Of a DNA stretch of 64,000 nucleotides, positions 37,412 to 53,228 are shown piece by piece. The position numbers and the translations under genes are program-made. This stretch comes from Pedococcus aerophilus (lineage in GTDB: Bacteria; Actinomycetota; Actinomycetes; Actinomycetales; Dermatophilaceae). Where the stretch lies: assembly GCF_039532215.1 (NCBI RefSeq), contig NZ_BAAARN010000001.1:2031942-2095941 (forward strand). Reading direction: 5' to 3'. Below the pieces are notes generated by a model. It saw only the letters and a program-made list of their open reading frames with translations. It ran no database searches and had not been told where the DNA came from. The first letter of the stretch is position 1; each line of letters begins with the position of its first letter.

Positions 37412-37482
37412 GCCGGTGTAGCTCAATGGTAGAGCGCCAGCTTCCCAAGCTGGACACGCGAGTTCGATTCTCGTCACCGGCT
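37412..37482 (+). tRNA. tRNA-Gly, anticodon CCC
   Basis: 71-nt tRNA. The acceptor stem GCCGGTG/CACCGGC is perfect, the anticodon stem-loop is CCAGC-TTCCCAA-GCTGG (anticodon CCC), and the T-arm carries GTTCGATTC. CCA is not encoded in frame with the discriminator. It marks the left edge of the accessory island that follows. Confidence 0.96.
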
Positions 37483-37546
37483 CCCACGAGGGATTCACCG
37501 AAATGGCCGAAACAGTCCCCCGAAATGGGGCCGGACCTACGGTGGA

Positions 37547-37590
37547 CATGACGAAGGGGCCCGACCAACAGGTCGGGCCCCTTCGTCATG
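37547..37590. terminator. Strong bidirectional hairpin between tRNA-Gly and the mobile module
   Basis: 20-bp perfect arms (37547-37566 and 37571-37590) with an AACA loop, ending 1 bp before the stop of the DDE-like gene. Suits a terminator for both the tRNA and the minus-strand operon. Confidence 0.85.
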
Positions 37591-37591
37591 C

Positions 37592-39364
37592 TCATGCCGC
37601 GCGCTGCTCTCCGTAGGCTGCATCCACGTCATCTGCTTGCTGGCGAGTCAGCATCGTCAACCCATCCACCCACTGTGTGCTGGCCAGCAGCGGGTGTTCG
37701 GCGTCGCCGAGTCCGGTCCGCTCATGCCAGTTGTTGAGCTCTCGAATGTTGTAGGAGGCGACCGCCGCGGCCATCGCGAGCGTGACCATCGGCAGACCGG
37801 TGAACTGGAAGAAGCCGCGGTGGATGTTCTCGGTGTTCGGATTCTTGAGGTTGCCGTAGACGCCCTCGACGTAGGTGCGCCTATCCCACGAGGGTTCCCA
37901 GCGTCCATCTCCCCAGTACTCCTCTTGGGCGTACTTCATGTGTCGCCCCGGTGGAATCTGCACGGTGGTCTGCTTGCAGAAGGGAGTCTTGGCCGCGGGT
38001 GGCACCACGATCGGCTGTCCGGTCTCCCGGGCGACCTCCACGGTTCCATCGATGAAGGGGCAGCCCACCTTGCCGTTGAGCGCGGGACAGCCCCATCGGC
38101 TCTTCCCGTCTCCCAGGACCGTCTTGTGACGGCGCATCGCGAACTTGAAGCGCTCGTCGATCTGGCTGCGGAAGGTGTCGATCTCTGCTTTCGTACCGGT
38201 TGACCCAGGCCGCAGCAAAACCTCGAGGTGGCTCGGCGTGCCGGGGCAGTGTGGCCAACCTGCGATGATCTTGCTGCCCTCGTAGTCGACTGCTCCGTGG
38301 TCGTCCTTGCGAAGATCGTGGACCAGCCGCACACCCCGTTTCCAAAGCGGCAGGGCCCAGCGTTCGGCCTTCTTGTACGAGTAGTGGCGGTCCCCGATGA
38401 GGTCGCCAACCTCCACGCCGGCCGCGAGGACGTCGTCGATCATGCCCACGGTGACATCCACGATGTCGGTGCTCGCTGGCGTCAGGCGAAACCGTTCCAC
38501 AAAGAGCGGCTCGGCACTGGCGTCCTTGGTCTGACCGACATCGGGGATGCGGACGAGCGTGTGCAGGGCGTATCCGAAGTAGCTGGTCCGTCCACCGTCC
38601 TTGTGCGTCTTGACACCCCACTTGGCGTCGGGGTCGAACCGCCGCGCCTTCGACGCAGGCGCCTCGACCCGGGCTTCGGATGGCCCACGTGAGTCCGAAG
38701 CGACCGTGGGCACTTCCTTGACGTAGTCCTCGTCCACGGGCTCGTGGTCAAGCGCCTCGACGGGCACAGAACCCTCGACGGCAGAGGCGGCCAAGGGTCG
38801 GCCTGACCTCTGCTCGTCCTCGTCAGACGGATGGACGGGAGGCGCGTCGACGGGCTTCCGTCGTCCGCGTGTCCACGCCCACACCCCCGACTCGTCAACG
38901 GCAAGGGCCGACCCCGATCTGGCCACGACGTGAGTCGTGACCGTGAGGGCATCCGCGATCGCCGCCACCACCCGTTCCCGCCGCAGGCACTCCTCCTCGG
39001 AGAGGGAGGATGCGAGGGGGCCAGTCCACGCAAGGTGCTTGTTCAGCGCACTGCCCATGTCGTACAGCTGCTTGGGGGTCAGCTGGGCGACGGTGTTCCC
39101 GTCCTTGCGAAGCACGCCCAGTTCCCACTGGAGACCCCGCGGGAGCTGACCGGTGGCGATCTCCCACATGCGCTGGATGGTGGCGCGTCCCTGCATCGCA
39201 GCGGCGATGAGCAGGATCATGAAGAGGCGTCCGTCCAACCCTTCGCGCTTTCGGCCACGGTTGCTTCGTCGACTGTTGGCATCGAGAAGGGCACCGATCC
39301 CAGCCTTGTCGACCACCCATCGCGCGTGCTCGACATCGGTGATTGTCTGCTCGACCGTCTTCAT
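37592..39364 (-). CDS. DDE transposase-like protein of a three-gene mobile module
   Basis: 590 residues. The layout follows large IS1182/IS5-type transposases: an N-terminal helical region (LLDANSRRSNRGRKREG), catalytic Asp157 (LAVDESGVWAW), a variable acidic insert (about 190-255), Asp325 in IGDRHYSYKKAERW, a cysteine-bearing region (CPALNGKVGCPF) and Glu500 in RTYVEGVYGNLKN followed by RGFFQFTGLP...ASYNIREL. All three acidic residues are present. Its ATG overlaps the stop of the recombinase-like gene upstream (ATGA), so it is translated with it. No flanking terminal inverted repeats were recognised, and the pairing with recombinase-like genes is unusual for an insertion sequence. Confidence 0.75.
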   Translation of the reverse strand: MKTVEQTITDVEHARWVVDKAGIGALLDANSRRSNRGRKREGLDGRLFMILLIAAAMQGRATIQRMWEIATGQLPRGLQWELGVLRKDGNTVAQLTPKQLYDMGSALNKHLAWTGPLASSLSEEECLRRERVVAAIADALTVTTHVVARSGSALAVDESGVWAWTRGRRKPVDAPPVHPSDEDEQRSGRPLAASAVEGSVPVEALDHEPVDEDYVKEVPTVASDSRGPSEARVEAPASKARRFDPDAKWGVKTHKDGGRTSYFGYALHTLVRIPDVGQTKDASAEPLFVERFRLTPASTDIVDVTVGMIDDVLAAGVEVGDLIGDRHYSYKKAERWALPLWKRGVRLVHDLRKDDHGAVDYEGSKIIAGWPHCPGTPSHLEVLLRPGSTGTKAEIDTFRSQIDERFKFAMRRHKTVLGDGKSRWGCPALNGKVGCPFIDGTVEVARETGQPIVVPPAAKTPFCKQTTVQIPPGRHMKYAQEEYWGDGRWEPSWDRRTYVEGVYGNLKNPNTENIHRGFFQFTGLPMVTLAMAAAVASYNIRELNNWHERTGLGDAEHPLLASTQWVDGLTMLTRQQADDVDAAYGEQRAA

Positions 39365-40353
39365 CGGGTGCTCCCGTCGACGAGGTTCTGAGCGGCATCG
39401 AGGTAGGGCACCAGCTCAACGAGGGTGCCGGCGGTGCGCACCCCTGCGGCGTCCATGAGGACCGCAAGGGGGACGGGCCGCGTCATCAAGGTAGCCATCC
39501 AGGTTGAGCGCAGACGGCTCTGTTCGAGGTGGGGGACGCTCCCCAAGAGCGTGGCCCGCGCGAAGACATCGGAGGCCACGTTGTGACGGTTCGACAGTCG
39601 GCCCAGAAGTAGGGCGCTGCCGGTCAGTCCCTTGAGTCCTTCACGCAGCAGGTCCTCGTACTCGCGGAGAACAGTCACCTTGCGCGCACGCGGGCCGGGC
39701 ACGCAGAGGGCGATCCCACACTCTCCCTCGTCAAGCACGTGGTCTCGTTGGAGGAGTTTCAGCTCGGGTGAGTCGATGCCGGCCCCGGCCCCCATGGCGA
39801 CGCAGAGGCACATCTTCCGACGCATCTCGGCGGTCGGCTGCACTTTGGCGACCCTGCAGATCTTGTCGATCTCGTCTTGGGTGTAGGGCGGTCGGATCCC
39901 GGCTCGACTGATGCTCACGCCCTTGAAGGGGACATCCGCGGGGTTGTGGTGGTCCGCCAGGCCGCGGAGGCGGGAGCGCCGGTCAGAGCGGGACTTCTCC
40001 TTGCAGTTGGGCATGCCGACCCGGGTGTACTCGTCGACGTTGGACCGCGTCAGGGTCGTGCGGCAGTCGGCGGGGTGCCCGTGCTTGAGCGCCCAGACCC
40101 AGAAGTGGCCGACATGGGTGACGTGCTGCTTGAGGCTCTTGGTCCCGGTGACGTTGGATCCCAGCAGGCTGAGTAGGACGAGGGGCCGCACCTGCTCCCA
40201 GCGGGGGACCACTGGGCCTCGCGGCTTGTAAACGTTCTCGACGTAGTGCACGAAGTCCGCCGGGAGCGGCGTGGGCGCCCCGGCCTTCTGCTCCAAGAGC
40301 TCTTGACGACGCCGCTTGGCCTGGGCGGCACTGACCTTGCCTGTTCGATTCAT
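39361..40353 (-). CDS. Degenerate tyrosine recombinase-like protein
   Basis: 330 residues. N-terminal core-binding-like region (FVHYVENVYKPRG to KLKHGHPADC area) with SLKQHVTHVGHFWVWALKHG, as in phage-integrase SAM-like domains. The C-terminal part resembles the catalytic domain: GAGAGIDSPELKLLQRDHV corresponds to the usual GLR.SEL box but the first Arg is replaced, LRSTWMATLM matches the second Arg box, and VPYLDAAQ may hold the Tyr. The loss of one key Arg suggests altered or structural activity. ATG 40353 has an excellent ACGGAGG site; a longer frame is not needed. Coupled to the DDE-like gene and 96 bp after the next recombinase-like gene. Confidence 0.6.
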   Translation of the reverse strand: MNRTGKVSAAQAKRRRQELLEQKAGAPTPLPADFVHYVENVYKPRGPVVPRWEQVRPLVLLSLLGSNVTGTKSLKQHVTHVGHFWVWALKHGHPADCRTTLTRSNVDEYTRVGMPNCKEKSRSDRRSRLRGLADHHNPADVPFKGVSISRAGIRPPYTQDEIDKICRVAKVQPTAEMRRKMCLCVAMGAGAGIDSPELKLLQRDHVLDEGECGIALCVPGPRARKVTVLREYEDLLREGLKGLTGSALLLGRLSNRHNVASDVFARATLLGSVPHLEQSRLRSTWMATLMTRPVPLAVLMDAAGVRTAGTLVELVPYLDAAQNLVDGSTR

Positions 40354-40449
40354 TGCTGCCTCCGTTGGTGAGGGGCCGCCCAGTTCGGGCGGTGTCAGGG
40401 ACGGTGCCGGGCAGGTCTGCTTGCGCAATGGCCCGCTTCGCTTCTTTGG

Positions 40450-41277
40450 TCAGCCGCGAAGGAGGGCCTGGACGTCGCTCTCGGAGGGTCGTGGGAGATG
40501 CGGAAGGATGCGGTCGAGCGCGGTCTGCGTCAGCCCGCCGGAGGCGATCGCCGCGTGCGTGGTGCCCCAACGCTCAAGCGTGTTGACGATGCTGGTGGCG
40601 CGAAGACGATCGAAGCGAACTTGGACGTCCGTTGGTGCGGCCTCGCGACGCGCAGCGTCGAGGTTCCCGATAGGTGCCGCCTTGAGCGCGCCGCGGCCGC
40701 TCACGGTCTCGAGGATCGACGCCAAGGGGCCCTCGGGTGCAGCGGCAGCCTGCAGCGAGGCCAGTTCAGATGCGGCGTACGGCGCCGGACCCTCACCTCG
40801 TGGTTGCCGCCGAGTGCACGACGAGTGCCCCTCGATCGCTCGCAAGAGCCGGCGCAGGATCTCGCGCTGCTTGGCGAGCGTCCCCGCCCCCAACTGGTGC
40901 GGGTTGGTTCGGCAGTACCGCTCGATCCATTCGGTGGTTATGACCGTGACGATGTCGAGAGTGCCTGCGCGCTGGAGCACCCACACCAGGAACCTGGACG
41001 TGTGGCTCAGACAGACCCTCGCGTCGTTGCGGCTGGGCGGCGCGGTGGCGATGACGAGGTCGCGGGCCGTTGCCCCGATCACCGTCCACTGCTGAGCCGG
41101 GAGGGTGGGCGTGTAGTTGGCGATGTACCGGGCTACCTGTTCGCTGACCTGAGCGGACGGCGACTGCGTATCGGTGTTCATGGGGCTCACAGTCCAGGGT
41201 CGAGGCTGGTCGGCGATGCGGGTGAGCGGACTCCGCGCCTTGCCATACAGGTGATCCCCTTCGTGCTGGTCGCTCAT
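40450..41277 (-). CDS. Recombinase N-terminal-domain-like protein of the mobile module
   Basis: 275 residues. The stretch ATARDLVIATAPPSRNDARV to FLVWVLQRAG, TEWIERYCRTNPHQLGAGTL and KQREILRRLLRAIEG looks like the core-binding (SAM-like) domain of tyrosine recombinases. No complete Arg-His-Arg-Tyr catalytic set is visible, so it may bind DNA without cutting it. The start ATG 41277 overlaps the stop of the 56-residue gene (ATGA at 41274-41277). A second Met 35 codons in is an alternative start. Function is inferred from position between small leader gene and the two module proteins. Confidence 0.5.
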   Translation of the reverse strand: MSDQHEGDHLYGKARSPLTRIADQPRPWTVSPMNTDTQSPSAQVSEQVARYIANYTPTLPAQQWTVIGATARDLVIATAPPSRNDARVCLSHTSRFLVWVLQRAGTLDIVTVITTEWIERYCRTNPHQLGAGTLAKQREILRRLLRAIEGHSSCTRRQPRGEGPAPYAASELASLQAAAAPEGPLASILETVSGRGALKAAPIGNLDAARREAAPTDVQVRFDRLRATSIVNTLERWGTTHAAIASGGLTQTALDRILPHLPRPSESDVQALLRG

Positions 41278-41444
41278 GCCGTCGTGAGGCGGACAGACGC
41301 GCCCGCGACGACGACCCGCCGGCCGTGGGACGTTGCGAGCCGACCAAGGCTTCGCCCGGCCGTGTCGTAGCTGATGAACATGCCGTTGCCCCGTCGGGGC
41401 TGGCTGTGCGAGTGGTGGGTGCCGTGCGGCCGCTCGTGGGTCAT
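41274..41444 (-). CDS. 56-residue protein leading the mobile-module operon
   Basis: A His/Arg/Ser-rich N terminus (MTHERPHGTHHSHSQPRRG) is followed by a short beta-like C terminus. A very strong AGGAGAAGGAC ribosome site precedes ATG 41444, and the stop overlaps the next start by 4 bp, which supports real translation. No family is recognised; it may act in coupling or as a small DNA-binding peptide. Confidence 0.6.
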   Translation of the reverse strand: MTHERPHGTHHSHSQPRRGNGMFISYDTAGRSLGRLATSHGRRVVVAGASVRLTTA

Positions 41445-41637
41445 GTCCTTCTCCTGAGTCGGGCTCTCACGTGGTCCGCGAGCGCGTTCCCTCACAGGTC
41501 CGGCGTCCCGAGGAGTCGGCAATCCCGCTCTTTGGCCGGGCCTCCGGACGGCGCCCTTGCCTCTAGGAAGCGGATCATCGAGTCCGACCAGCGCCGGCCT
41601 TCTCCCATCCCCGCGCAGGCTGACGCTTAAGACACCG

Positions 41638-41668
41638 CGGAGGCGGGACCGCTGTGGTCCCGCCTCCG
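41638..41668. terminator. Hairpin terminator after the 121-residue gene
   Basis: 13-bp perfect arms (41638-41650 and 41656-41668) with a GCTGT loop, 40 bp beyond the stop at 41709 on the minus strand. It separates that gene from the mobile-module operon. Confidence 0.8.
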
Positions 41669-41708
41669 GTATGTATGGGCGCTCGGCCCGTGGTCCAGCT
41701 CGAGGCTG

Positions 41709-42074
41709 TTACGCAGCCTCGGGTGGGGTGAGATTGACTCCGCTTCGGGACGCGATTGCCTGGCAGATGCCGCACTCGGCTGACATCTGCGGCGGTTGGT
41801 GCTCCAGCTCGGCTTCTTGTCGAGCCCAGTCTCCGAGCCGCTCGACGTAGATGTCCGGGAACTCCTCGCTGAGTGCGATCTCGACTGCGAGCTGCTGCCC
41901 GAAGGTGTCGTTGGCATCGTCGAGGCCGTGCGATCGGCGCTCCACAGCCAAGGTGGCGAGCCGCCATCGCAGATCGAGCAGGTGCTCAAGTCGGCGACGC
42001 CGGCGACGCTCATCGAGCAGCCCGGTAGTGCTGTTGGTGGTGGGGGGCTGCTGAGGGGTGTGAGTTGTAGTCAC
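41709..42074 (-). CDS. Hypothetical protein, 121 residues
   Basis: Thr/Pro-rich start, then a helical, charged middle (LLDERRRRRRLEHLLDLRWR, and NDTFGQQLAVEIALSEEFPD) and a C-terminal CGIC pair that could bind metal. No family recognised. The start is uncertain: GTG 42074 is chosen because composition becomes protein-like there; the frame continues upstream to 42221 without clear similarity. It lies upstream of, and probably separate from, the mobile module. Confidence 0.55.
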   Translation of the reverse strand: MTTTHTPQQPPTTNSTTGLLDERRRRRRLEHLLDLRWRLATLAVERRSHGLDDANDTFGQQLAVEIALSEEFPDIYVERLGDWARQEAELEHQPPQMSAECGICQAIASRSGVNLTPPEAA

Positions 42075-42595
42075 GGTTGGTGGCCTTTGGCCTTGGTGTC
42101 CGTGCCGGCCCGGTGCCGGGAACGTGACACGGAACGCGTCCTCTCGGTTGCGTTCGAGGACACCCGTCGGCGCGTCGGAGTAGCCCACAAGGGGGCCATC
42201 CCACCAACTTCCCCGAGACACCCCGCGAGCGTTGTCTCAGCACCTCATTGCGCAGTGCCCGTCGGACCGAACGATCACAAGTCCCCGAGCGAGCGAGACC
42301 TCTCGCACGGCCCGGGCGGACACGAACGTTGACAAGTCCACAGAGGAATGACGACGCACGGGGCCACAGCGGCCGGGAGCGGGCAGAAAGGAGGTGATCT
42401 ACGCCCCCGCTGGCCGGCTGCGTTCTCCGGCGGCCTGTCGTTCATCGTTGCCGGGCGGAGGAGTCCCAGAGGAGGTGTGACACAACTCCACCGCAGTGGC
42501 AACGGTGCGGTAGTCCCGTTCCTGCGACGACCACCCAGCGGGGTCGCGGCGCAGGGACAACCTGTCTTCGCCAAGACGTAAGTTTCTGCGCTCGG
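42075..42595. other. Non-coding region with a 15-nt complement of the 16S 3' end
   Basis: No convincing gene. At 42385-42399 the plus strand matches the reverse complement of the 3' end of 16S rRNA over 15 nt (an extended Shine-Dalgarno sequence), yet no ATG or TTG lies at a usable distance; a GTG inside it would open only 28 codons. Confidence 0.5.
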
Positions 42596-43354
42596 TCAGA
42601 GCGCCGCGAGCGCCCACTGCCTTTGCAGATCAACCAAGTCGTCGGGATAGGGGCTCAGGGTGGCGTGCAGCAGTCGATGGCAAGTAGCACACAGGACGAG
42701 CAGGTCATCAACATTGGTCTCAACCATGCCGGTGCCGCGCTCGCTCAAGGGGACTATGTGATGGGCGTCCAGCCCTCGGTCGCCGCGGAGACCGAACAAG
42801 TCCCGAAGGTTTCGTCGACATCCTTGGCATTCGCCATCTACTTTGTCGATGGCCGCGCCCCGATTCGTTGTTGACCGCGCACGACAGCTCTTCATCTGAC
42901 GCTCGCCCTCGGTCTCTGAGGTGTCACGGACTCCCTCGATGAGCCTTGCCAGCGCTTCGACTAGAGCGTCGCCATCATCACCTGCGAACTGCCCTCGGCC
43001 CGTGGCATCGAGGCCCGCTTCGCTCAACAGCGCTTGCCACGACACTCGCGGCTTGATCATCACATCGGTTTTGGCCGACCAGACGGCGTCACCGCTCTTG
43101 ACTTGCTCGACCCTGCACAGGCTGACGACCATCCGGGCACGACCCCGACCGACGGTGCTGAGCAGGAGGTCCTTCTGGCGCACCGTGTGGGCCAGGTGCC
43201 AACCAGGCTGGTCACCCCCTCGCCAGTACTGCTCGAGCTCGTCAAGGTTGCCGTCGCACCGCACCACGCGGGAGCCGGACAGCGCTGCGATGCGGCGCAC
43301 CTCGGCCGCTTGGTCCGCAGGGCTGAGAGAGCGGCGAAGGTTGGTCCCCGTCAT
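42596..43354 (-). CDS. HNH endonuclease
   Basis: 252 residues. The C-terminal HNH domain contains a CQGC pair, LDAHHIVPLSERG (His198, His199), NVDDLLVLCATCHRLLHA with Asn and final His, so both metal and zinc-type cysteines are present. The N-terminal 130 residues are unassigned. ATG 43354 overlaps the stop of the type ISP gene (ATGA at 43351-43354), so it is made together with that enzyme. It may be an accessory nuclease of the restriction system, or an independent methyl- or phage-DNA-targeting enzyme. Confidence 0.85.
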   Translation of the reverse strand: MTGTNLRRSLSPADQAAEVRRIAALSGSRVVRCDGNLDELEQYWRGGDQPGWHLAHTVRQKDLLLSTVGRGRARMVVSLCRVEQVKSGDAVWSAKTDVMIKPRVSWQALLSEAGLDATGRGQFAGDDGDALVEALARLIEGVRDTSETEGERQMKSCRARSTTNRGAAIDKVDGECQGCRRNLRDLFGLRGDRGLDAHHIVPLSERGTGMVETNVDDLLVLCATCHRLLHATLSPYPDDLVDLQRQWALAAL

Positions 43355-46300
43355 CCCTGGTCCGGCCGGATGTCCAGGGCTGGGAGTGCGTCCACGATCT
43401 TCATGGTCTCGACACTGACGGTGACGATGCGAGCGAGGAGATCGAGGATGTAGCGCGGATCCCCCACCTCTCGCGACCAGTCGTTGGGGTTGTTGACGAT
43501 TCCCGACGCCTTGTCGATCTTGATGTAGTAGCGGTCGATGATCCACTCGATGGCAGAGCGGGAACCGAGCATGTAGCGGTACGCCTCGTCCGGGATGGCC
43601 CGCAGGCTGATGTTGCTGTTGTAGACGATTGTGGTGCGGTCCCGCTTCTCGCCGGCTGCCTTCTGCTCGGCGGTCGGTTTGCCAAAGGCCATCTTCTTGT
43701 CGCCTACGGCGTAGAACTCGTATGGATCACGCTCCATCGGCGCGTTCGTGCCGAGCCCGTCGAGTGGGTACGGAGTCACAGTCTCGTAGCCCAGGTGCAG
43801 TTCCGAGAGCAGGCGCCCGGCGTCGATGAACGGCTGCGCATCCTGCACCAGCGGGATGCGCGGCAGCATCTTCTTCAGGTCTGCCGCGTAGGTCTCGCGG
43901 AACTCGGAAGAGTGCAGCAGACCGTAGACGTAGAAGAAGACGTCGTCCTTGGTGACAGCGGGACCGTACGCTGCGTGGAAACGCTCGAGCGCTTCGTCCG
44001 CAATGTTGTCGATCCGCCGGTATCCATTCACAACGTCGCCGTCCACTGACGCGTCGAAGGTCATCATCCCGTCGTCCGAGTTGACCTGTTCGTACCTCCA
44101 CCGCGCGAAGAACTGGCCACCTTCTGAGCCGTAGAAGTTGAGATCCGGGAGATGCGCGACCATCAAGGCCGCGAACGGCTTGAGAGCGCCGACAGCAACT
44201 TGGTAGAAGCCGTAGTTGGGATGGTCGGGGGTGGGGAAGAGGTCGTTCAGCCGGTAGACCATGTCGTTGAGTGCACGGTCGAAGCAGACATGCTCTCGCG
44301 TGAAAGGCCGATATCCCGCGGGCCGCACAGCAGCTGCGTCGAAGACTCGTCGGCGGCCTCGATCGAGGTCTCCCAACAGACCTCGGCTCCAGCTGATAAG
44401 TGCTGGATCGCTGTTCACGCTCTTACTGGTTCGCCCGGCCGCCCGCTCACTCTCGTACGTGGCAACTAGTCGATCCATGTTTGCTGCGACGGCAGCCGCC
44501 GAGAAGTTGTAGCACCAAGCGTCGCGCGCAGTTGCAAGCCCCCGCGAGAACAAATCGAACGCTGCGTGGCCCTGCTCCTTGTCTCCGATGGCGAGGTAGG
44601 CGCTGAAATCGTCGCGCCGTTGGTGGAGCCAGTCGCCGTAGGCGTTGGGGGTCAGGTGAGTGACAGGCTCAAGCCTCGTCACCCCCTCAACATCCTTAAC
44701 CTTCGCGAGCTTTGCCTCGCGCGTGAGGTAGTCGCCGATGTCGGTGTAGTGGACACGCGCAGGACCCTCATGCGCAGGGTCCTTCACGAGGATCGTGATG
44801 GCGACAGTTGCTCGAGATCCGCCGCCGAAGACCTTGCCGCCTTCCCTGAGTGCTTGGTCACCTGCGGTGCGCTGGTTCCCGCGCAGGTTCAGGATGTGAA
44901 TGTCGCTGAACTCCTCGGCGAGCGTGAGGCGCATGCCATCTGCCGTCGTGGAGTCCAGCCAACCGCCATTGGTGACAAAGGCGATAACGCCCCGATCGGT
45001 GATCCGGAGCGTGGCCCACTTGATCGCGCGGATGTAGGAGTCGTAGAGCGAGTTCTTGTTCGTGGCGGTAGACCGTGCGGCGTAGGTGTCGCGAATAGCG
45101 CTATCAAGGTCGGGGTACTTCTCGTTGGCGTTGTTGTCGTTGGCAGAGTCCTGACCGGAGGAGTACGGAGGGTTGCCGATGATGACTTGGATGTCGAGGG
45201 CCTTGAGCTTTTCGAGCCGTTCGTTGTTCTGGACGAAAACCGTGGTGTCCAGCCGGTCGTCGTTCTCCCAGGACTGCAACGTGTCGGTCAGGACGAGTCC
45301 GGGGAACGGTTCGTAGGCAGCGGTCTCCCCGAGGTGACCGCGTAGGTCCTGGTAGGTCGTCTCGATGTTGACGGCGGCGATGTAGTACGCGAGCAGCAGG
45401 ATCTCGTTGGCGTGCAACTCGCGGGCGTACTTGCGGCGGAGGTCCTGCGGTTCGATGAGTCCGATCTGCAGCAGCCGAGTGATGAACGTGCCGGTGCCGG
45501 TGAAGCCGTCGAGGACGTGTACGCCCTCGTCAGTGAGGCCCTGGCCGAAGTGGCGCCGTAGGACGTCGTCGGCGGATCGGAGGATGAAGTCGACGATCTC
45601 AACGGGGGTGTAGACGATGCCGAGCTTGTCGACGGTCTTCTTGAACGCGGTGGCGAAGAAGGTGTCGTAGAGCTTGACGATGAGCTTCTGTCGCCCGTCG
45701 GCGGTGTCGACTCCCGTCACTCGCATGCGGACCGAGTCGTAAAACTTCTCCAACGAGTGGTTCTCGTCGTCTAGGCGGTGCTCGTCAAGGGCTCCGAGCA
45801 TGCGCTCCATGGTTTGGGCGACTGGGTTATGGGCGGCGAAGTCGTAGCCGCCGAACAGGGCGTCGAACACCGGCCGGGTGATGAGGTGCTGGGCGAGCAT
45901 CTCGACGGCATCGGCGCGGGTGATGCCGTCGTTGAGGTTGCCGCGGAGCCCTTCAAGAAACTTGTCGAACTCCTCCGTGACGACCGGGTCGCCACCGTCG
46001 AGTAGTGAAGTGATCCTGGTGATGTGACGCTGGGCGATGTCAGCGATGTCTTTGGCCCAGTCTTCCCAGTAGGTCCGGGAACCCACCTTGGCCACGACCT
46101 TGGCGTAGATGGCCTCGCGCCACTCGTCCAGCCACGTCAGGGCGAGGGCGCCTTGAGTCCCGGTGCCGTCACCCGACCGGTCGCCGTCGCCGGGGCGCGG
46201 GACACCGATGACATTGACCTTGTCGTCGCGCTTCTTGACCAGCTCGATGCGGTTAACCATCGCGTTGAACCGCTCGTCGTGAGCACGAAGGGCTTGGAGC

Positions 46301-48180
46301 ACTTCCCAGACCGCGGCATACCGCTTGTTGTCCTTTAGCGCCTGCTCGGGCGTCATGCCGGCCGGGATGCCGATGGGCAGGATGATGTAGCCGTACTCCT
46401 TGCGCCCCTTCGGATCCGTGCGCATGACGCGCCCGACCGACTGGACGATGTCGACCACTGACTTGCGCGGCGACAGGAACATCACCGCATCGAGGTTGGG
46501 GACGTCCACTCCCTCGGAGAGGCAGCGGGAGTTGGTGAGGATGCGGCAGGTGCCGTCCGGAATGTCTGCGCGCAGCCAGTCGAGGCGGGTGTTGCGCTCC
46601 AGCGCGTTGAAGGTGCCGTCGACGTGCTGGATCTCGCAGGTCAGGACCGGGTCGCCCGCCTCGTCCTCGAGGTCGTGGGCGGCGGCGTACTGGGCCACGG
46701 TCTGCCCGAACAGGGACTCGATCTGCTTGGAGTCCTTGATGGTGCCGGCGAAGGCGACTGCACGACGCATCGGCGCGGGATCTGCCGCGAAGGAGTGCTC
46801 GGCGTCGCCGCGCTTCGCCAGTCCGTTCCAGCAGCCCACGATCTTGGCGGCGTCATCCAGCCGTAGTTCGTTGCCTTCGTCAGCGAGCTGGAGCTGGAAC
46901 GTGCGGGAGACGCTGGTCTCGTCGACCGCGAGGACAAGCACCTTGTAGTCGACGAGTAAACGGCGGGTGACGGCTTCGCCAAAGCCGAGCCTGTGAAGCT
47001 CGGGTCCGAACAGGTCCTCGTTGTCCATGGACGCGAGGATCGCGTCGGCGTCGCCGGCCTTGGCCTTGGAGGAGTCGTCGTAGATGCGCGGTGTGGCGGT
47101 CATGTAGAGCCGCTTGGCCCCGCGGATGTGGTCGTTGTTGTGCACCCGGACGAAGGCGGATTCGTCCTCCCCGGCCAGGGTGGTGCCGGTGGTGCGGTGC
47201 GCCTCGTCGCAGATGATGAGGTCGAATGCCGGGAGATCGCCCTGCTTCTGCGCCTGCGCGACGACGTCAATGGACTGGTAGGTGGAGAAGACGACCGTCA
47301 TGGAGTCGGACTCGCCAAGAGCTTGGGTCAGGCGGGACTCAAGGACGGCGACGTTCGTCGTGGACGGCAGGGCGAGATCCACCGCGGAGATGTCCTCGTT
47401 GACTGCCTTGGACCGTGCGGTGGCCTTGCGGTCGGAGCAGACGGCCAGTGGGGCGAGAGGCACCTCAGCCTCGGTGGCCCACTCACGCAACGTCTGGGAC
47501 AGGAGGCTGATGGACGGCATGAGGAAGAGGACACTGCCGCCGGCACCCACGAGCTGCTCGGCTAGTCGCAGGCTGGTGAAGGTCTTGCCGGTACCGCAGG
47601 CCATGATCAACTTGCCGCGGTCATGTGTGGCAAAACCCGCCGTGACCGCCTCCACGGCCTCCAGTTGGTGTGCGCGGAGCTTCTTCTTGTCACTGACCGG
47701 GAGCACCTGCGGCCTGGCCCAGTCGAAGGCATCCCAGTCGACGACGGAAGCTTCCAGGTCGGCCATGCCGATCCGGCGGACCGGGATCTGCTGCGCCTGG
47801 ATGGCGTCCTCAGCGTGGCCGTTCCACCTGTCCGTGGTCGAGACGATGATCCGCTGTGCAAAGCCCTCCTTGCCCGACGCGGACAAGAACGAGTCGATGT
47901 CGTTCTTGCCGATTGTTGACCCGGGTGCGTAGAACTTGCACTGGATGGCGACGTTTGCACCGGTCAGGCGGTCGACGGCGACGAGGTCGATGCCGGTGTC
48001 GTGCTTCCCGTCGCGGCCGGGCCATTCCTGCCAGAGGTAGACCTCGCTGAACTGCTCGGCGTACACCGGGTCAGTTCGCAGGAACTGAGCCATCAACTCC
48101 TCGAGCTTGCTGCCCTTGTCGGCCTCCGACGTGGACTGCCCCCGTAGTTCGTCCAGGACCTCGTAGATCGACGTTGACAT
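43351..48180 (-). CDS. Type ISP restriction-modification enzyme (nuclease-helicase-methyltransferase)
   Basis: 1609 residues in one chain. Mrr-like nuclease at the N terminus with Asp65 and QCK (80-82); superfamily 2 helicase with ACGTGKT (194-200), DEAH (325-328) and TATPR; a coupler; N6-adenine methyltransferase with motif I DGFTGTGTF near residue 891 and NPPY (1003-1006); then a target-recognition region. This is the order of LlaGI/LlaBIII-type enzymes, which methylate one strand of an asymmetric site and cleave after head-to-head translocation (family knowledge). No separate methylase or specificity gene is needed. ATG 48180 is used; a Met at 48219 is an in-frame alternative. An inverted repeat lies just upstream. 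Confidence 0.93.
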   Translation of the reverse strand: MSTSIYEVLDELRGQSTSEADKGSKLEELMAQFLRTDPVYAEQFSEVYLWQEWPGRDGKHDTGIDLVAVDRLTGANVAIQCKFYAPGSTIGKNDIDSFLSASGKEGFAQRIIVSTTDRWNGHAEDAIQAQQIPVRRIGMADLEASVVDWDAFDWARPQVLPVSDKKKLRAHQLEAVEAVTAGFATHDRGKLIMACGTGKTFTSLRLAEQLVGAGGSVLFLMPSISLLSQTLREWATEAEVPLAPLAVCSDRKATARSKAVNEDISAVDLALPSTTNVAVLESRLTQALGESDSMTVVFSTYQSIDVVAQAQKQGDLPAFDLIICDEAHRTTGTTLAGEDESAFVRVHNNDHIRGAKRLYMTATPRIYDDSSKAKAGDADAILASMDNEDLFGPELHRLGFGEAVTRRLLVDYKVLVLAVDETSVSRTFQLQLADEGNELRLDDAAKIVGCWNGLAKRGDAEHSFAADPAPMRRAVAFAGTIKDSKQIESLFGQTVAQYAAAHDLEDEAGDPVLTCEIQHVDGTFNALERNTRLDWLRADIPDGTCRILTNSRCLSEGVDVPNLDAVMFLSPRKSVVDIVQSVGRVMRTDPKGRKEYGYIILPIGIPAGMTPEQALKDNKRYAAVWEVLQALRAHDERFNAMVNRIELVKKRDDKVNVIGVPRPGDGDRSGDGTGTQGALALTWLDEWREAIYAKVVAKVGSRTYWEDWAKDIADIAQRHITRITSLLDGGDPVVTEEFDKFLEGLRGNLNDGITRADAVEMLAQHLITRPVFDALFGGYDFAAHNPVAQTMERMLGALDEHRLDDENHSLEKFYDSVRMRVTGVDTADGRQKLIVKLYDTFFATAFKKTVDKLGIVYTPVEIVDFILRSADDVLRRHFGQGLTDEGVHVLDGFTGTGTFITRLLQIGLIEPQDLRRKYARELHANEILLLAYYIAAVNIETTYQDLRGHLGETAAYEPFPGLVLTDTLQSWENDDRLDTTVFVQNNERLEKLKALDIQVIIGNPPYSSGQDSANDNNANEKYPDLDSAIRDTYAARSTATNKNSLYDSYIRAIKWATLRITDRGVIAFVTNGGWLDSTTADGMRLTLAEEFSDIHILNLRGNQRTAGDQALREGGKVFGGGSRATVAITILVKDPAHEGPARVHYTDIGDYLTREAKLAKVKDVEGVTRLEPVTHLTPNAYGDWLHQRRDDFSAYLAIGDKEQGHAAFDLFSRGLATARDAWCYNFSAAAVAANMDRLVATYESERAAGRTSKSVNSDPALISWSRGLLGDLDRGRRRVFDAAAVRPAGYRPFTREHVCFDRALNDMVYRLNDLFPTPDHPNYGFYQVAVGALKPFAALMVAHLPDLNFYGSEGGQFFARWRYEQVNSDDGMMTFDASVDGDVVNGYRRIDNIADEALERFHAAYGPAVTKDDVFFYVYGLLHSSEFRETYAADLKKMLPRIPLVQDAQPFIDAGRLLSELHLGYETVTPYPLDGLGTNAPMERDPYEFYAVGDKKMAFGKPTAEQKAAGEKRDRTTIVYNSNISLRAIPDEAYRYMLGSRSAIEWIIDRYYIKIDKASGIVNNPNDWSREVGDPRYILDLLARIVTVSVETMKIVDALPALDIRPDQG

Positions 48181-48190
48181 GCCCGCATCC

Positions 48191-48218
48191 TGCCTCACCC
48201 ACGGCTCGACGTGAGGCA
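48191..48218. promoter_or_regulatory. Inverted repeat upstream of the type ISP gene
   Basis: TGCCTCAC (48191-48198) and GTGAGGCA (48211-48218) form an 8-bp perfect inverted repeat with a 12-bp spacer, 10 bp upstream of ATG 48180. Candidate operator or mRNA hairpin controlling the restriction gene. Confidence 0.45.
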
Positions 48219-48350
48219 TGGCCCGCCAACTCGCGCCGATGAGCGGCCATGCCGTCTGGCCGGGTGCGCGAGCCTCAGCCCCCTGCGTGTGGTCCGGCCG
48301 GGATGTCGGTCATGTCCCGTATGGTTCAGCCGCAAAGCGAGGGGGATCTC

Positions 48351-49988
48351 ATGGCACGCAAGCCAAGTCCGGTCACTGCCGTGACCCTGTACCAGTTGCA
48401 TGGCCCGCCGTCACTGGGTCGGCACATTCGAGAGCGCTACCGCGAGTCCGACGACTTCGAGACGCGAGAGGTGGTGGTCGGCGGTCGCCGGGGGATCCTT
48501 TTGCTCGGGGCGACGCCAGCGAAGACACCGGCCTGGGTCTCGACCCTCAACGGTTGGCTTCCTACAGACGACCTTCCGGAGCTAACGAACCAGAACGCCG
48601 CCGCATGCCTTCTCCTGCCCCGCCGCGACGGCACCGACACCTGGGCGATCTGCTTCGGTCTTGGGTTCCACCTTCTGGAGGCCGCACGCATCGTCCCCGG
48701 CATGGGCCGCAGCCTGGCGATCCGAACGGCCGACCCTATTCACCTGAAGTCTCTGACTCACTCACGATTGGACTCCCGCGCCTACGTCGCCCGCACGTCC
48801 ATGCCAGGAGGGGACGACCTGGACGCCTTCGGGATTGGCGGCGTGGCCGACCTCGTGACACGGATGGTTGCACCCGCCCGCCTCCCCGGCACCACTTCGG
48901 CCGAGGACACCAGCCGCACTCACGAGGTGCGGGGAGCGGACTCCGTGAAGCTGCCTCTTGCGAACACGCAGTCGGCCCTCATCAGGGACTTGGACGTCGT
49001 CGAGGACCTTCTCGCGCTTGACCCAGTAAGCGAGTTGGCCGAGATCGAACAGCTCTCGGAGCTCAAGCCCAAGGACCCTCGACTGTCCCAGCTCGAGGAG
49101 CTTCTCGATGGGGCCCTCGGAGATGCTTCGGACGACCGCGTTGGACTCGCTTGGCCAACGGAGGCAGCGGACATCGCCGTTCCCATCCACCACCTCATCG
49201 TGGAAGGGGCGCCGCGCGGACATACCGGGGACCGTGAGCGCCCAGCCATACTCGAAACCATCATCGGCCCCGTGCGCGACCTGCCCTCCGGCCACCGAGT
49301 TCGGCGACTCCGCTCGATGCGCGTCATGGCATTCACCGACATCGACGATGCTGCGAGCAGCCTCGTGCCAGCCCGGCGCTGGATCGTCGCCGAGTTCGAG
49401 CACGAGGGACACCGCTACTGCCTGCACGATGGCCGGTGGTTCGAGGTCGATCAGCGACTCACTGACCGCATCAGTGCCCGACTCACGCGCCTGTTCGACG
49501 TACAGAGTCAGCTTGACGCCCTACCGGCATGGTCGACCGGGGACGAAGCGGAGTACAACCAAGCGCTTGCCGAGACTCTCGGGGGCGTCTGCCTCGACCG
49601 GCAACTGGTGCGAACTGACCAGCACAGCAGGGGGTTCGAAGCCTGCGACGTGCTGACGCGCGAAGGAGTGCTGCTCCACGTCAAGAAGGTCGACCGCTCC
49701 ACACCCGCTAGCCACCTGTTCGCGCAGGCAGCCGTCTCGACAGAGGCGCTGCTCACGGACCACCAGGCGCGCGGTCGGCTTCGAGAGCTGGTGACAGCCA
49801 ACGGCGGAGACCCTTCATGGGTACGGGAGCGACCGACCGAAGTCGCACTGGTGATGGCCAGGCCACGAAAGATCACACCGGAGGACTTCTTCTCGTTCAG
49901 CCGCGTCAGACTCGCTCGACTCGCAGACGAGGCCGATCGACTTGGCGTGCCCCTCACCGTCCACTGGGTCCCTCTGGAGGCAAAGTGA
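48351..49988 (+). CDS. TIGR04141/DUF6119 family protein
   Basis: 545 residues. Features of the sporadically distributed TIGR04141 family are visible: DDFETREVV.GGRRGILLLG, AAACLLLPRRDGTDTWAICFG, the central RRWIVAEFEHEGHRYCLHDGRWFEVD, and C-terminal EAEYNQALAE, CLDRQLV, GFEACDVLTREGVLLHVKK, STPASHLFAQAAVSTEALL. The HVKK...SHLF part suggests a nucleic-acid or nuclease-like site but no role is established. GAGGGGG precedes ATG 48351. It overlaps the next gene in GTGA at 49985-49988, so it is the first gene of the three-gene operon and is divergent from the type ISP gene. Confidence 0.82.
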   Translation: MARKPSPVTAVTLYQLHGPPSLGRHIRERYRESDDFETREVVVGGRRGILLLGATPAKTPAWVSTLNGWLPTDDLPELTNQNAAACLLLPRRDGTDTWAICFGLGFHLLEAARIVPGMGRSLAIRTADPIHLKSLTHSRLDSRAYVARTSMPGGDDLDAFGIGGVADLVTRMVAPARLPGTTSAEDTSRTHEVRGADSVKLPLANTQSALIRDLDVVEDLLALDPVSELAEIEQLSELKPKDPRLSQLEELLDGALGDASDDRVGLAWPTEAADIAVPIHHLIVEGAPRGHTGDRERPAILETIIGPVRDLPSGHRVRRLRSMRVMAFTDIDDAASSLVPARRWIVAEFEHEGHRYCLHDGRWFEVDQRLTDRISARLTRLFDVQSQLDALPAWSTGDEAEYNQALAETLGGVCLDRQLVRTDQHSRGFEACDVLTREGVLLHVKKVDRSTPASHLFAQAAVSTEALLTDHQARGRLRELVTANGGDPSWVRERPTEVALVMARPRKITPEDFFSFSRVRLARLADEADRLGVPLTVHWVPLEAK

Positions 49989-51007
49989 GCTCCGCGGCTG
50001 ACGATCAGATGGGACGCGATATGCCCGGGGACCAGGATGCGAAGGCAATCGCAGATGCGGTGATTCGCGCTAGCGGACCCATCGGTCAGTGGGCCCAGCC
50101 CGCGGGCTACCCGACCTCCTTGGCCTTGTGCATCATCGACTCGATCCAGTCCGTCGGCGTCCGGTACAAGACAGTCGAGAATGTCGTCGACCGCTACCGC
50201 AACCTGCGAGGGACCGAGGTCGCAAATACGGACGGCGCACCCGAACTGGCGGCGGTCTTCGACGACATCGGCGTCGACGGATTCATCGCAACCGTCGGGA
50301 ACCGGAACAGGACCTCGACCCAACCCGGAGCCGCGCTCAAGGCAGAGGTGATCCAGAAGGCTGCCGCCCTCCTGTCACTCGACGCGCCTACAGCTGGCGA
50401 CCTGCGAGGACGTGCCACAGATCTCGACCTCGAAGCCCGATGGAGAGACCTTCCCGGCCAGCGCTCCGGAATCACGTGGCGGTACCTGCTGATGCTGGCG
50501 AACGTCCCTAGCGTCAAACCCGACCGCATGGTGCGACGCTTCGTCTCCCGGTCCGTCGGCCGGCCCGAGACCTCCTTCACTACAAACGAACTCGTACGAC
50601 TCGTGACACTGGCCTCCCAGCACCTCGGCGTGAGCCCCACCCTCACCGACCACCTCATCTGGAGGACAGCGTCTGGACGAGGTCCCCGCCCGATCACCCC
50701 ACCCTCGCCGGGGGCCGAACTCGCGGGGACCCACCTTCACACGCCGCACGAGGGTCAGCGCGTCCATGGAATCGTGAGCCTCGGAGAGATCGACCGACGG
50801 CAGACACGAGCTGGATACCCCTGGGGGATCATCGCGGCCAGTTGGAACGAGCGCCCCATCAAGCTCATCCTCTTCCCGATGGCATGGGACCGCTACGCAG
50901 CATTGTTGGGTTCCCCAGCCGTGCGAGTCGTGGGGGACCTCACTCGCACCGAGGACGGCACCTCCGGGCTGAGCGTGCTCGACATGCACCTTGAGCATGG
51001 TGGCTAG
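49985..51007 (+). CDS. Predicted HhH-GPD-like plus OB-fold protein, function unknown
   Basis: 340 residues. The N-terminal 200 residues match the plan of the HhH-GPD/endonuclease III fold: SLALCIIDSIQSVGVRYKTV, then GVDGFIATVGNRN, then LPGQRSGITWRYLLMLANV and KPDRMVRRFV, which parallel the LPGVGxKTA and VDTHVxRV blocks. The catalytic Lys position seems changed and the Asp kept, so glycosylase activity is uncertain. The C terminus (about 250-340), GQRVHGIVSLGEIDRRQTRAG to VRVVGDLTRTEDG, resembles the OB fold at the end of DnaE-type polymerases. GGAGG precedes GTG 49985, which overlaps the upstream gene. The assignments are by eye and not proven. Confidence 0.6.
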   Translation: MSSAADDQMGRDMPGDQDAKAIADAVIRASGPIGQWAQPAGYPTSLALCIIDSIQSVGVRYKTVENVVDRYRNLRGTEVANTDGAPELAAVFDDIGVDGFIATVGNRNRTSTQPGAALKAEVIQKAAALLSLDAPTAGDLRGRATDLDLEARWRDLPGQRSGITWRYLLMLANVPSVKPDRMVRRFVSRSVGRPETSFTTNELVRLVTLASQHLGVSPTLTDHLIWRTASGRGPRPITPPSPGAELAGTHLHTPHEGQRVHGIVSLGEIDRRQTRAGYPWGIIAASWNERPIKLILFPMAWDRYAALLGSPAVRVVGDLTRTEDGTSGLSVLDMHLEHGG

Positions 51008-51216
51008 GTCGTACTCTTCGACTGCACATGCTCACGCACGGCGCGGCGCCACGAGCGGCACAAAGTCCGCTCATGACGAGACGAGGATTTCTGGAATGAA
51101 CGCCTGGAGCCAACGCCTCGCGTTGACGCATCACGGTGCGACAGTTCTTGAGCGCCGACGCGGCGAATCACCATGACAGCGGATCCAGGACTCACGCAAG
51201 CCGCGAGGCTAGAGCC

Positions 51217-52908
51217 ATGATGGGTGCGCAGCCAGAAATGGAGATCGGGCCCTACCGGCTGATCCGGGAGCTAGGTCACGGTGGATTCGGTACGGTCTGG
51301 CTGGCTCAGAGCGAGAGGTCGCCTGCCCACCAAGCCGCCGTCAAGATCCTCACCCCGATCTCGTGGGACCACCACGATGCGGTGGCGCGCTTTGGCCGGG
51401 AGTGGACTGCGAGTTCCAAGGTGCGAAGCCGGAACATCGCACGCCCCCAGCACTGCGACCTTGATGCGCGACCCCCATGGATCGCGTACGAGTACATCGA
51501 CGGTCGCACCCTTCGCGAACAGCTCGCGGACGGACCGCTCACACCGTTCGATGCAGCCACCATCTTCCTCGGAGTAGCCAACGGACTGAAGGCACTGGCC
51601 TACCGCGACATCGTGCATCGGGACTTGAGCTTGGACAACATCATGGTCCGCTCCGATCCAGCGAGAGGACTGGATGGGGTGATCATCGACTGTGGCATCG
51701 CCAGCCTGGGCGAGGGCACTCATTACACAAGGGATGCCGTCGGCAGGATGGAGTTCCAGGCACCGGAGCAACTTCAGGGCGTGACCCTCGGCCCTGCGGT
51801 GGATGTTTGGCAGTTCGCAGTAGTTCTCGTGAAGTCGCTCACCGGGCACCTGCCCTTCGCCGGGAAGGACCTGGGTTGGCGGATGCGAGAAGCCATCGAG
51901 GGCGGCCCGGACCTTCGCGGCCTCCCGGAGCCCTTCATCCCCCTTGTCAGGCAGAGCCTCTCCCTGTCCCCCAAGGACCGCCCGACAGCCACGCAGCTCA
52001 TCCAGAGCCTGGAACTCATCAAGCAGCAGGTGACGCCGCTGGTACAAGGCCGCCTTGAACGCCTTGAGACGCAGCTAGCTCACAACGGCGAGATCCGACT
52101 CTACGGCGTCGTCAAGGTTCCCCGTGACGGGGCAAAGCGCACCATCAACCTGTATGAGCGCGACCTGCGTGACGGGGCATTGATGCTCGGCGACGAGGTC
52201 TCCATCGCAGAGGACTTGCCCGGAGCACCTAGGCGTTCGATCTTGCAGATGGCCAACGCCGCTGAACGGAGCGGTCGCGAACGGCCGATCAAGCTTCCGA
52301 CGACTTGCCCGTCGTGCGGCACACCACTGCCTAAGTCCGACGACGGAGGCGTGGTGCCGAGGTGCCCACGGCCCCGCTGGTGTCCTAGTCCACTCCGAGC
52401 CAGGATGCGCTGGGTCGCGCGTCGACTGAGTCTGCCCCTCGAGGATGAAGACATCGAAACGCTCCTGACCAGTGGCCTCGTTCACGACGAAAGCGAGCTC
52501 TTCTCACTGACCAGAACAACGTTGGGATCCATAGCACGGTTCAGCGCCTCCACCGCGGACGGCCGAACCTCGTTGACCCCGAATGGCGAGCGACTGCTGG
52601 CAGCCATCGAGGCCAACATGAACATGTCCATGGAGGTCGCGTTGAGTGCCGTTGGATTCGCACCGAACTTCCTAACGCACGTCTACTTCACGATCGACGA
52701 GTTCCTCCAGGCCATGCGCGAGGATCCACAAGAACTTGCGCGCGTCGCCTCCAACCTCCATCTCCCTGACCTTGTCATGGAGCCACACGCAGACGACCTC
52801 TGGCGGTGCAGAGTCCTTGACGTCTGGCTTTCAGCGGGCGTTCGCATTGAGTCCCGCTACGAGCCGACTCCGGTACGTGCACGACGACCGTCCACGCCTG
52901 ATCACTAG
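51217..52908 (+). CDS. Ser/Thr protein kinase fused to LigA-like OB, zinc-finger and HhH domains
   Basis: 563 residues. Kinase domain at 13-275: glycine loop GHGGFG (20-25), Lys in AAVKIL, VHRDLSLDN with Asp136 (the usual Lys of HRDLK is Ser), Asp158 in IDCGIAS in place of DFG, FQAPEQ and DVWQFAVVL. The rest parallels NAD-dependent DNA ligase: an OB part (YERDLRDGALMLGDEVSIAE), a zinc finger with Cys364, Cys367, Cys383 and Cys389 (CPSCGTPLP...RCPRPRWCPS), and the HhH part (LPLEDEDIETLLTSGLVHD, ARFSASTADGRTSLTPNGER, LLAAIEANMNMSMEVALSAVGF). Adenylation and BRCT domains are missing, so it cannot seal nicks. The ligase parts would bind DNA and control the kinase. ATG 51217 follows GCGAGG; it lies 209 bp after the previous gene. 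Confidence 0.85.
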   Translation: MMGAQPEMEIGPYRLIRELGHGGFGTVWLAQSERSPAHQAAVKILTPISWDHHDAVARFGREWTASSKVRSRNIARPQHCDLDARPPWIAYEYIDGRTLREQLADGPLTPFDAATIFLGVANGLKALAYRDIVHRDLSLDNIMVRSDPARGLDGVIIDCGIASLGEGTHYTRDAVGRMEFQAPEQLQGVTLGPAVDVWQFAVVLVKSLTGHLPFAGKDLGWRMREAIEGGPDLRGLPEPFIPLVRQSLSLSPKDRPTATQLIQSLELIKQQVTPLVQGRLERLETQLAHNGEIRLYGVVKVPRDGAKRTINLYERDLRDGALMLGDEVSIAEDLPGAPRRSILQMANAAERSGRERPIKLPTTCPSCGTPLPKSDDGGVVPRCPRPRWCPSPLRARMRWVARRLSLPLEDEDIETLLTSGLVHDESELFSLTRTTLGSIARFSASTADGRTSLTPNGERLLAAIEANMNMSMEVALSAVGFAPNFLTHVYFTIDEFLQAMREDPQELARVASNLHLPDLVMEPHADDLWRCRVLDVWLSAGVRIESRYEPTPVRARRPSTPDH

Positions 52909-53074
52909 CAGCGCGGCGAGGCGCGAGCACGAGGCCAGCACTCACAGGCCGTGTGCACACTCCGGGAATCTGGTGTGGAGACGTCTCGAGCCGAGATGCC
53001 GACTACCTCCTGACCAGCGCGTTTGCATTTCGGTGAACACCCCTCCCACCGCGAGATCTGGTAGCCATGACCTC

Positions 53075-53197
53075 ATGAGGATCGGGAACACGCAGGTCCG
53101 CCCGCTCGGCGGCGCCCCGGGATGTCTGACGATGATCCTGGTCTCGGCGGTGCTGTCGGTCGCGCTCACCGTCCTGCTCAACCTCGTCCTGCGCTGA
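53075..53197 (+). CDS. 40-residue single-pass membrane peptide
   Basis: A short polar head (MRIGNTQVRPLGGAPG) followed by one hydrophobic segment (LTMILVSAVLSVALTVLLNLVL). No clear ribosome site. The composition is that of a real small membrane protein rather than random high-GC sequence, but evidence is limited. It marks the right side of the accessory island. Confidence 0.5.
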   Translation: MRIGNTQVRPLGGAPGCLTMILVSAVLSVALTVLLNLVLR

Positions 53198-53228
53198 CGG
53201 GAGTCGAGAAGGCCCCGGGGCTTCGACC

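What the first reader, a model, noticed from the sequence alone, without database searches (positions are those of the whole stretch)
51217..52908. Protein kinase fused to the DNA-reading half of NAD-dependent DNA ligase
Residues 13-275 form a Ser/Thr kinase and residues about 285-500 follow the LigA order OB fold, Cys4 zinc finger, HhH array, with no adenylation or BRCT domain. The ligase parts recognise nicked or bent duplex DNA, so the protein could be a DNA-state sensor that signals by phosphorylation. I know of no described kinase of this make-up.
Basis: partly seen in the sequence, partly recalled or inferred. Interest (0 to 1): 0.92.

Follow-up and report, generated by a model that had tools for sequence, protein, structure and literature searches.

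The report
Protein kinase with repurposed DNA-ligase tail
A gene on a mobile DNA island joins a signalling enzyme (a protein kinase) to the back half of a DNA ligase; the ligase half keeps its zinc-held scaffold but seems to have lost the residues that grip broken DNA, so it looks like a rare, repurposed sensing or targeting part whose trigger is unknown.

Summary
ORF 51217-52908 (563 aa) is a Hanks-type kinase (13-264, Pfam 6.8e-31) followed by a module homologous to the back of DNA ligase LigA (322-545; PDB 3sgi 1.4e-17), with no adenylation or BRCT domain. AlphaFold2 of 270-563 gives pLDDT 87; Foldseek's seven best PDB hits are NAD ligases. Zinc finger and helical part are supported by sequence; the OB part only by position and by a model built with LigA rows.

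Of seven residues recalled as nick-DNA contacts in E. coli LigA, none is kept in alignment (one glycine arguable); 82 LigAs keep 4-7, 69 of them all 7. The module looks like a stripped scaffold, not an evident nick reader. The kinase keeps ATP/Mg/catalytic residues but is odd on the substrate side.

The gene is the last of a 15.7-kb island at a tRNA-Gly, absent from a sister species, with a type ISP restriction enzyme, a DUF6119 protein and a glycosylase-fold protein. No second fusion was found in the samples searched, and the neighbours were not found together elsewhere. A defence role is inferred from context only.

The parts
51217..52908 (+). kinase-LigA fusion gene, 563 aa ('KinLig')
   Evidence: ORF; GC by codon position 0.68/0.47/0.79 in the kinase part, 0.72/0.44/0.71 and 0.64/0.52/0.71 in the ligase parts, coding-like throughout
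51253..52011 (+). kinase domain, residues 13-265: G-loop GHGGFG 20-25, Lys43, Glu62, HRD 134-136 followed by Leu-Ser, Asn141, Asp158 (DCG), GR 176-177, APE 182-184
   Evidence: Pfam Pkinase 6.8e-31; alignment with 5 kinases of the same genome; motif positions
52042..52281 (+). OB-like segment, residues 276-355
   Evidence: position and AlphaFold2/Foldseek only; not detectable by sequence
52306..52383 (+). LigA-type Cys4 zinc finger, Cys 364, 367, 383, 389
   Evidence: aligned with E. coli LigA Cys408, 411, 426, 432, Cys in all 82 LigA rows; segment 27.7 bits
52402..52860 (+). helical (HhH-domain-like) segment, residues 396-548, with hairpin glycines largely lost
   Evidence: 23.6 bits against LigA profile, shuffles at most 1.0; helices in the model; residue comparison
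49985..51007 (+). gene 2: HhH-GPD DNA-glycosylase-like fold plus a ~105-residue C-terminal part not seen in its relatives; GTG start overlaps the DUF6119 stop by GTGA
   Evidence: sequence; AlphaFold2 good for about 12-234, poor for 235-340; Foldseek best 1.5e-3, OGG1, then EndoIII and MutY among the best, none under 0.001
48249..49988 (+). DUF6119 / TIGR04141 family protein
   Evidence: Pfam 4.1e-96, TIGR04141 3.4e-87
43351..48219 (-). type ISP restriction-modification enzyme, divergent from the DUF6119 gene
   Evidence: Pfam Type_ISP_C 3.3e-96, ISP_coupler 2.6e-52, Mrr_cat_2 2.1e-47
37412..37484 (+). tRNA-Gly(CCC) at the left edge of the island
   Evidence: ARAGORN
37485..53228 (.). genomic island, about 15.7 kb; KinLig is its last large gene
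   Evidence: sister genome G235 matches the window up to 37484 (86%) and again from 53376 rightward (72%, 91%); there the MOSC gene ends just before the tRNA-Gly. No direct repeat of 12 or more bases of the tRNA was found in the window

Best explanation
An island-borne Hanks-type protein kinase whose C-terminal half is a LigA-derived OB-zinc-HhH scaffold that has been turned from nick sealing to regulation or targeting. Shown: the domain make-up, the zinc scaffold, the loss of the conserved nick-contact residues, the mobile-island setting beside a restriction enzyme. Inferred: the scaffold binds some ligand (nucleic acid in a way unlike LigA, or a protein that normally meets the ligase) and thereby brings the kinase to, or switches it on at, a host or phage target, as part of the island's defence cargo. 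Ligand and target are unknown.
For: Kinase ATP/Mg/catalytic residues present (Lys43, Glu62, Asp136, Asn141, Asp158). LigA homology well above chance and LigA fold in the model. 4 of 4 zinc Cys kept while 0 of 7 conserved contact residues are kept in alignment: selection or descent kept the scaffold and not the nick-binding face. Coding-like GC along the whole ORF. The gene lies in an island absent from a sister species with a type ISP enzyme. The GC3 of DUF6119, gene 2 and KinLig (0.71-0.79) is alike and lower than that of most neighbouring host genes.
Against: No second copy of the fusion, so no conservation shows that it works. Neighbours are not conserved with it: 0 of 13 other DUF6119 loci, 0 of 20 other type ISP loci and 0 of 10 other gene 2 loci carry the fusion (one DUF6119 locus, L036, has a weak kinase-only match, E 7e-5). 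The kinase lacks the usual catalytic-loop Lys (HRDLS; Lys in 5 of 5 same-genome kinases, and 15 of 15 viral kinases). Two recalled functional positions are kept: Arg446 as Arg403, and Arg487 as Arg441, though the latter is Arg in only 3 of 31 LigAs. High PADLOC scores do not mark it as a defence kinase: 5 of the 6 housekeeping kinases tested from the same genome score clearly higher on PD-T4-6 models and the sixth about equally.
Confidence: 0.45

Rival explanations
1. Nick or DNA-damage sensor: the module binds nicked or bent duplex and activates the kinase, perhaps on ends made by the type ISP enzyme or abasic sites made by gene 2.
For: LigA-derived fold; in LigA the OB, zinc and HhH domains belong to the DNA-bound clamp (passages of PMC10504179); DNA-cutting and glycosylase-fold neighbours; Arg403 kept, and the Gly of AVGFAPN (478-484) could stand in for the third hairpin if realigned.
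Against: 0 of 7 conserved contact residues kept in alignment; net charge of the helical part -10 against -7 (own LigA) and -5 (E. coli); neighbours not conserved with it.
Confidence: 0.2
2. Protein-binding decoy or docking module: the LigA scaffold is used because partners of LigA (host replication, repair or transcription proteins, or phage proteins that act on the ligase) bind it; binding directs or fires the kinase.
For: Scaffold kept with the DNA face changed; a LigA-RNA polymerase complex is modelled in PDB 9a6z, the best Foldseek hit.
Against: No partner shown; 31% identity to the genome's own LigA is no higher than to other actinobacterial LigAs (26-38% among the listed matches), so it is not a fresh copy of the host ligase.
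Confidence: 0.15
3. A chance gene fusion drifting on a mobile island, with weak or no function.
For: Found once in the samples searched; unusual kinase motifs; OB part unrecognisable by sequence.
Against: Intact 563-aa frame with coding-like GC; ATP-site and all four zinc residues kept, unlikely in a long-dead gene at ~31% identity.
Confidence: 0.18

Closest known systems
NAD+-dependent DNA ligase LigA
   Same: order and fold of OB, Cys4 zinc finger and HhH domain; zinc Cys spacing
   Different: no adenylation or BRCT domain; OB signature and most hairpin glycines lost; fused to a kinase
Actinobacterial Hanks-type Ser/Thr kinases (PknB-like)
   Same: kinase fold and ATP/Mg/catalytic residues; 28-32% identity to five in the same genome
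   Different: HRDLS, DCG and GR in place of HRDxK, DFG and GT; LigA module in place of PASTA or other sensor parts
Anti-phage kinases in PADLOC (PD-T4-6, MAD6)
   Same: kinase domain matches their profiles (5e-42, 4.9e-44)
   Different: the match is not specific: same-genome housekeeping kinases match PD-T4-6 models at up to 8.7e-116; no match outside the kinase domain was listed
[quoted passage not shown]
   Same: active kinase fused to a zinc-binding, beta-rich part in actinobacterial conflict systems
   Different: described with PP2C phosphatase and vWA genes; none was among the Pfam hits of the island proteins scanned. Identity of the fused domains there was not compared

Membership tests
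NAD+-dependent DNA ligase (LigA) | sequence homology over zinc finger and HhH region | tested here: met
   3sgi 1.4e-17; 27.7 and 23.6 bits
NAD+-dependent DNA ligase (LigA) | adenylation domain with KxDG and NAD-binding part | tested here: not met
   residues 1-275 are a kinase; no such hit at E<=1
NAD+-dependent DNA ligase (LigA) | OB signature and hairpin glycines that contact nicked DNA (roles recalled) | tested here: not met
   0 of 7 kept in three alignment settings, Gly521 arguable; LigAs keep 4-7
NAD+-dependent DNA ligase (LigA) | C-terminal BRCT domain | tested here: not met
   no hit at E<=1; ORF ends at residue 563
Hanks-type protein kinase | Pkinase fold with G-loop, VAIK Lys, C-helix Glu, HRD Asp, Asn, DxG Asp, APE | tested here: met
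Hanks-type protein kinase | Ser/Thr-type catalytic-loop Lys (HRDxK) | tested here: not met
   Ser138; Lys in 5 of 5 and 15 of 15 kinases compared
Anti-phage defence kinase (PD-T4-6 or MADS type) | profile match better than that of housekeeping kinases | tested here: not met
   5 of 6 same-genome kinases score clearly higher, L008 about equally
Anti-phage defence kinase (PD-T4-6 or MADS type) | protection against phage | not testable with these tools
   needs a phage challenge

The most novel reading that the evidence does not exclude
A signalling kinase that uses a ligase shell, stripped of its nick-binding face, as bait or gauge: it fires when a phage or damage-response protein engages what looks like the host ligase, or when the glycosylase-fold neighbour leaves abasic DNA. 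It would be an integrated decoy built from an essential repair enzyme.
Probability: 0.12. Interest if true: 0.85.

Novelty: new variant of a known kind. Interest (0 to 1): 0.5.

Why it matters
If it works, it shows that the DNA-clamping half of an essential ligase can be cut away and reused as a regulatory part of a protein kinase, linking phosphorylation to repair-type structures or proteins in a mobile island. The contrast (scaffold kept, nick contacts lost) gives a precise test of what the reused part binds.

Tried and rejected
Search for other fusions. Full-length query at E<=1e-38: 297 genomes of the order gave the window's own gene and G135, whose match covers only the kinase, residues 8-281; 396 of the phylum gave only the own gene. 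C-terminal query at E<=1e-22: only the own gene in 186 of the family. C-terminal query at E<=1e-15 in 394 of the class: 177 genomes match, the match list was cut short; the four listed frames under 650 aa were fetched. In 71 loci examined (29, 28, 14; some genomes twice) 0 have a kinase match and 68 have the adenylation domain; the other 3 (two genomes) have BRCT and sit at contig ends. The samples overlap. A divergent fusion below these thresholds would be missed. Two scans of 84,980 species genomes used exact 8-residue patterns and reach close relatives only: none and one PASTA-type kinase, L147, without LigA segment. Plasmids: 126 records, none covering 80% of the query; C-terminal query, one LigA. 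Phages: 23 records, none covering 80%, the 15 listed all kinase-only. Viral contigs: none. None of the viral kinase loci L148-L167, nor L147, L009, L017, L036, holds a LigA-like segment.

'Known defence kinase by PADLOC' was rejected after the same-genome control. 'Part of a conserved operon' was rejected: 0 of 13 DUF6119 loci (of 14 other genomes with a match; G239 was not fetched), 0 of 20 type ISP loci (of 30 other genomes with a match; several cut by contig ends), 0 of 10 gene 2 loci carry the fusion. Type ISP and gene 2 do lie side by side on a Dermacoccus plasmid. No promoter- or terminator-like site was found before the gene. A full-length alignment for structure prediction put LigA rows on the kinase and was not used. 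The pdb_via library was not available. Brig1, a defence glycosylase, is of the uracil-glycosylase superfamily (abstract and passages of PMC11078745), so it is not the type of gene 2.

Literature: 10 searches. None of the listings shows a kinase-LigA fusion; TIGR04141 gave 0 papers and DUF6119 one unrelated wheat paper. I saw listings, passages of PMC7159879, PMC5512222, PMC10504179 and PMC11078745, and the abstract of the last; no whole paper.

Full report
What is there. The ORF at 51217-52908 encodes 563 residues. Residues 13-264 are a protein kinase (Pfam 6.8e-31). Residues 322-545 match DNA ligase LigA (PDB 3sgi, 1.4e-17; NCBIfam 7.6e-15; own-genome LigA 3e-20). No adenylation or BRCT domain is found at E<=1.

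How far each part is supported. Against a profile of 31 LigAs the zinc segment scores 27.7 bits and the helical segment 23.6 bits, with shuffles of the latter at most 1.0; the OB segment scores -2.8 bits, no better than its shuffles. AlphaFold2 of residues 270-563, with 51 of the 64 viral LigA segments that I had extracted, gives pLDDT 87.1 and pTM 0.80. Foldseek in PDB lists seven matches with E<=0.001, all NAD+ ligases; in viral models the named hits among the best are NAD ligases. As LigA rows were in the alignment, the model agrees with the homology and does not prove the OB fold by itself.

The residue test. E. coli K-12 LigA was taken from NC_000913. The recalled functional residues fit its letters. 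The four zinc Cys are kept. At Arg333, Thr334, Val383, Ile384, Gly455, Gly521 and Gly553 the protein has H, N, G, A, gap, gap, A in three MAFFT settings, while 82 LigAs (31 found by homology, 51 viral) keep 4 to 7 of the seven, 69 of them all seven. The viral rows were fetched by patterns one of which includes Val383 and Ile384, so they are biased there; in the 31 others the seven are kept in 30 or 31. Arg379 is Glu here (Arg or Lys in all 31). Gly489 is Ser, but only 44 of 82 LigAs have Gly. Arg446 and Arg487 are kept as Arg403 and Arg441. Gly521 is arguable: the stretch AVGFAPN (478-484) could be aligned to the LigA hairpin by moving a gap. The helical part is more acidic (-10) than that of the own (-7) or E. 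coli LigA (-5). So the scaffold is kept and the face that grips a nick is largely gone. In LigA the OB domain binds the template strand, the zinc finger bridges OB and HhH, and HhH contacts the minor groove (passages of PMC10504179).

The kinase. Lys43, Glu62, Asp136, Asn141, Asp158 and APE are in place; the catalytic-loop Lys is Ser138, DFG is DCG and the GT of the P+1 loop is GR, unlike the five same-genome kinases aligned and, for the Lys, 15 viral kinases. I read it as probably active with unusual substrate choice; this is inference. PADLOC's PD-T4-6 and MAD6 models match it, but 5 of 6 other kinases of the same genome match PD-T4-6 models clearly better and the sixth about equally, so these matches say nothing about defence.

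The setting. A sister genome, G235, matches the window up to the end of tRNA-Gly at 37484 and again from 53376; there the MOSC gene ends just before the tRNA-Gly. The window thus holds an island of about 15.7 kb, 37485-53228. It carries a type ISP restriction enzyme, a DUF6119/TIGR04141 protein, gene 2 and the fusion, plus three ORFs next to the tRNA without Pfam match. Gene 2 overlaps DUF6119 by GTGA; its first ~230 residues model as an HhH-GPD glycosylase fold (best Foldseek 1.5e-3, OGG1) and Asp180, invariant in the relatives aligned, sits where I recall the catalytic Asp of that superfamily. Its last ~105 residues are absent from the relatives aligned and modelled poorly. The fusion starts 209 bases after gene 2, with no promoter- or terminator-like site found.

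Is the grouping conserved? No. The fusion is in 0 of 13 other DUF6119 loci, 0 of 20 other type ISP loci and 0 of 10 other gene 2 loci; type ISP and gene 2 are side by side in one, a Dermacoccus plasmid.

How rare is it? No second kinase-LigA fusion came up in overlapping samples of 297, 396, 186 and 394 genomes, in 71 LigA loci examined, or in plasmids, phages, viral contigs and two pattern scans of species genomes. The limits of each are in Tried and rejected.

Mechanism. Best supported: a kinase with a ligase-derived scaffold used as a regulatory or targeting part, carried on a mobile island that also carries restriction (0.45). A true nick sensor (0.2), a protein-binding decoy (0.15) and a drifting chance fusion (0.18) remain. 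What is shown is anatomy and residue loss; ligand, target and any defence role are inferred.

Novelty. Kinases with varied sensor parts are a known kind; a ligase-derived part is new to me and to the papers searched. I score 0.5: a clear, testable oddity, without conservation or mechanism.

Noticed in passing
window 49985-51007: Glycosylase-fold protein (HhH-GPD-like) with a C-terminal ~105-residue part absent from the relatives aligned; relatives on plasmids and in phage-like contigs.
   Followed up: partly
window 48249-49988: DUF6119/TIGR04141 protein of unknown function; 15 of 297 genomes of the order, own included, have one at E<=1e-12.
   Followed up: partly
window 37592-41277: Three minus-strand ORFs between the tRNA-Gly and the type ISP gene without Pfam or PHROG match; the first has a weak IS1182 transposase match (0.0055). 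Possibly the island's mobility genes.
   Followed up: partly
window 51047-51078: Inverted repeat (12-nt arms, 83% complementary, 8-nt loop) in the gap before the fusion gene.
   Followed up: no
L002-L008 (same genome): PADLOC PD-T4-6 models match ordinary actinobacterial kinases at up to 8.7e-116, a likely source of false defence calls.
   Followed up: partly
L022: Dermacoccus plasmid with a type ISP enzyme (68% identical) divergent from a gene 2 relative.
   Followed up: partly
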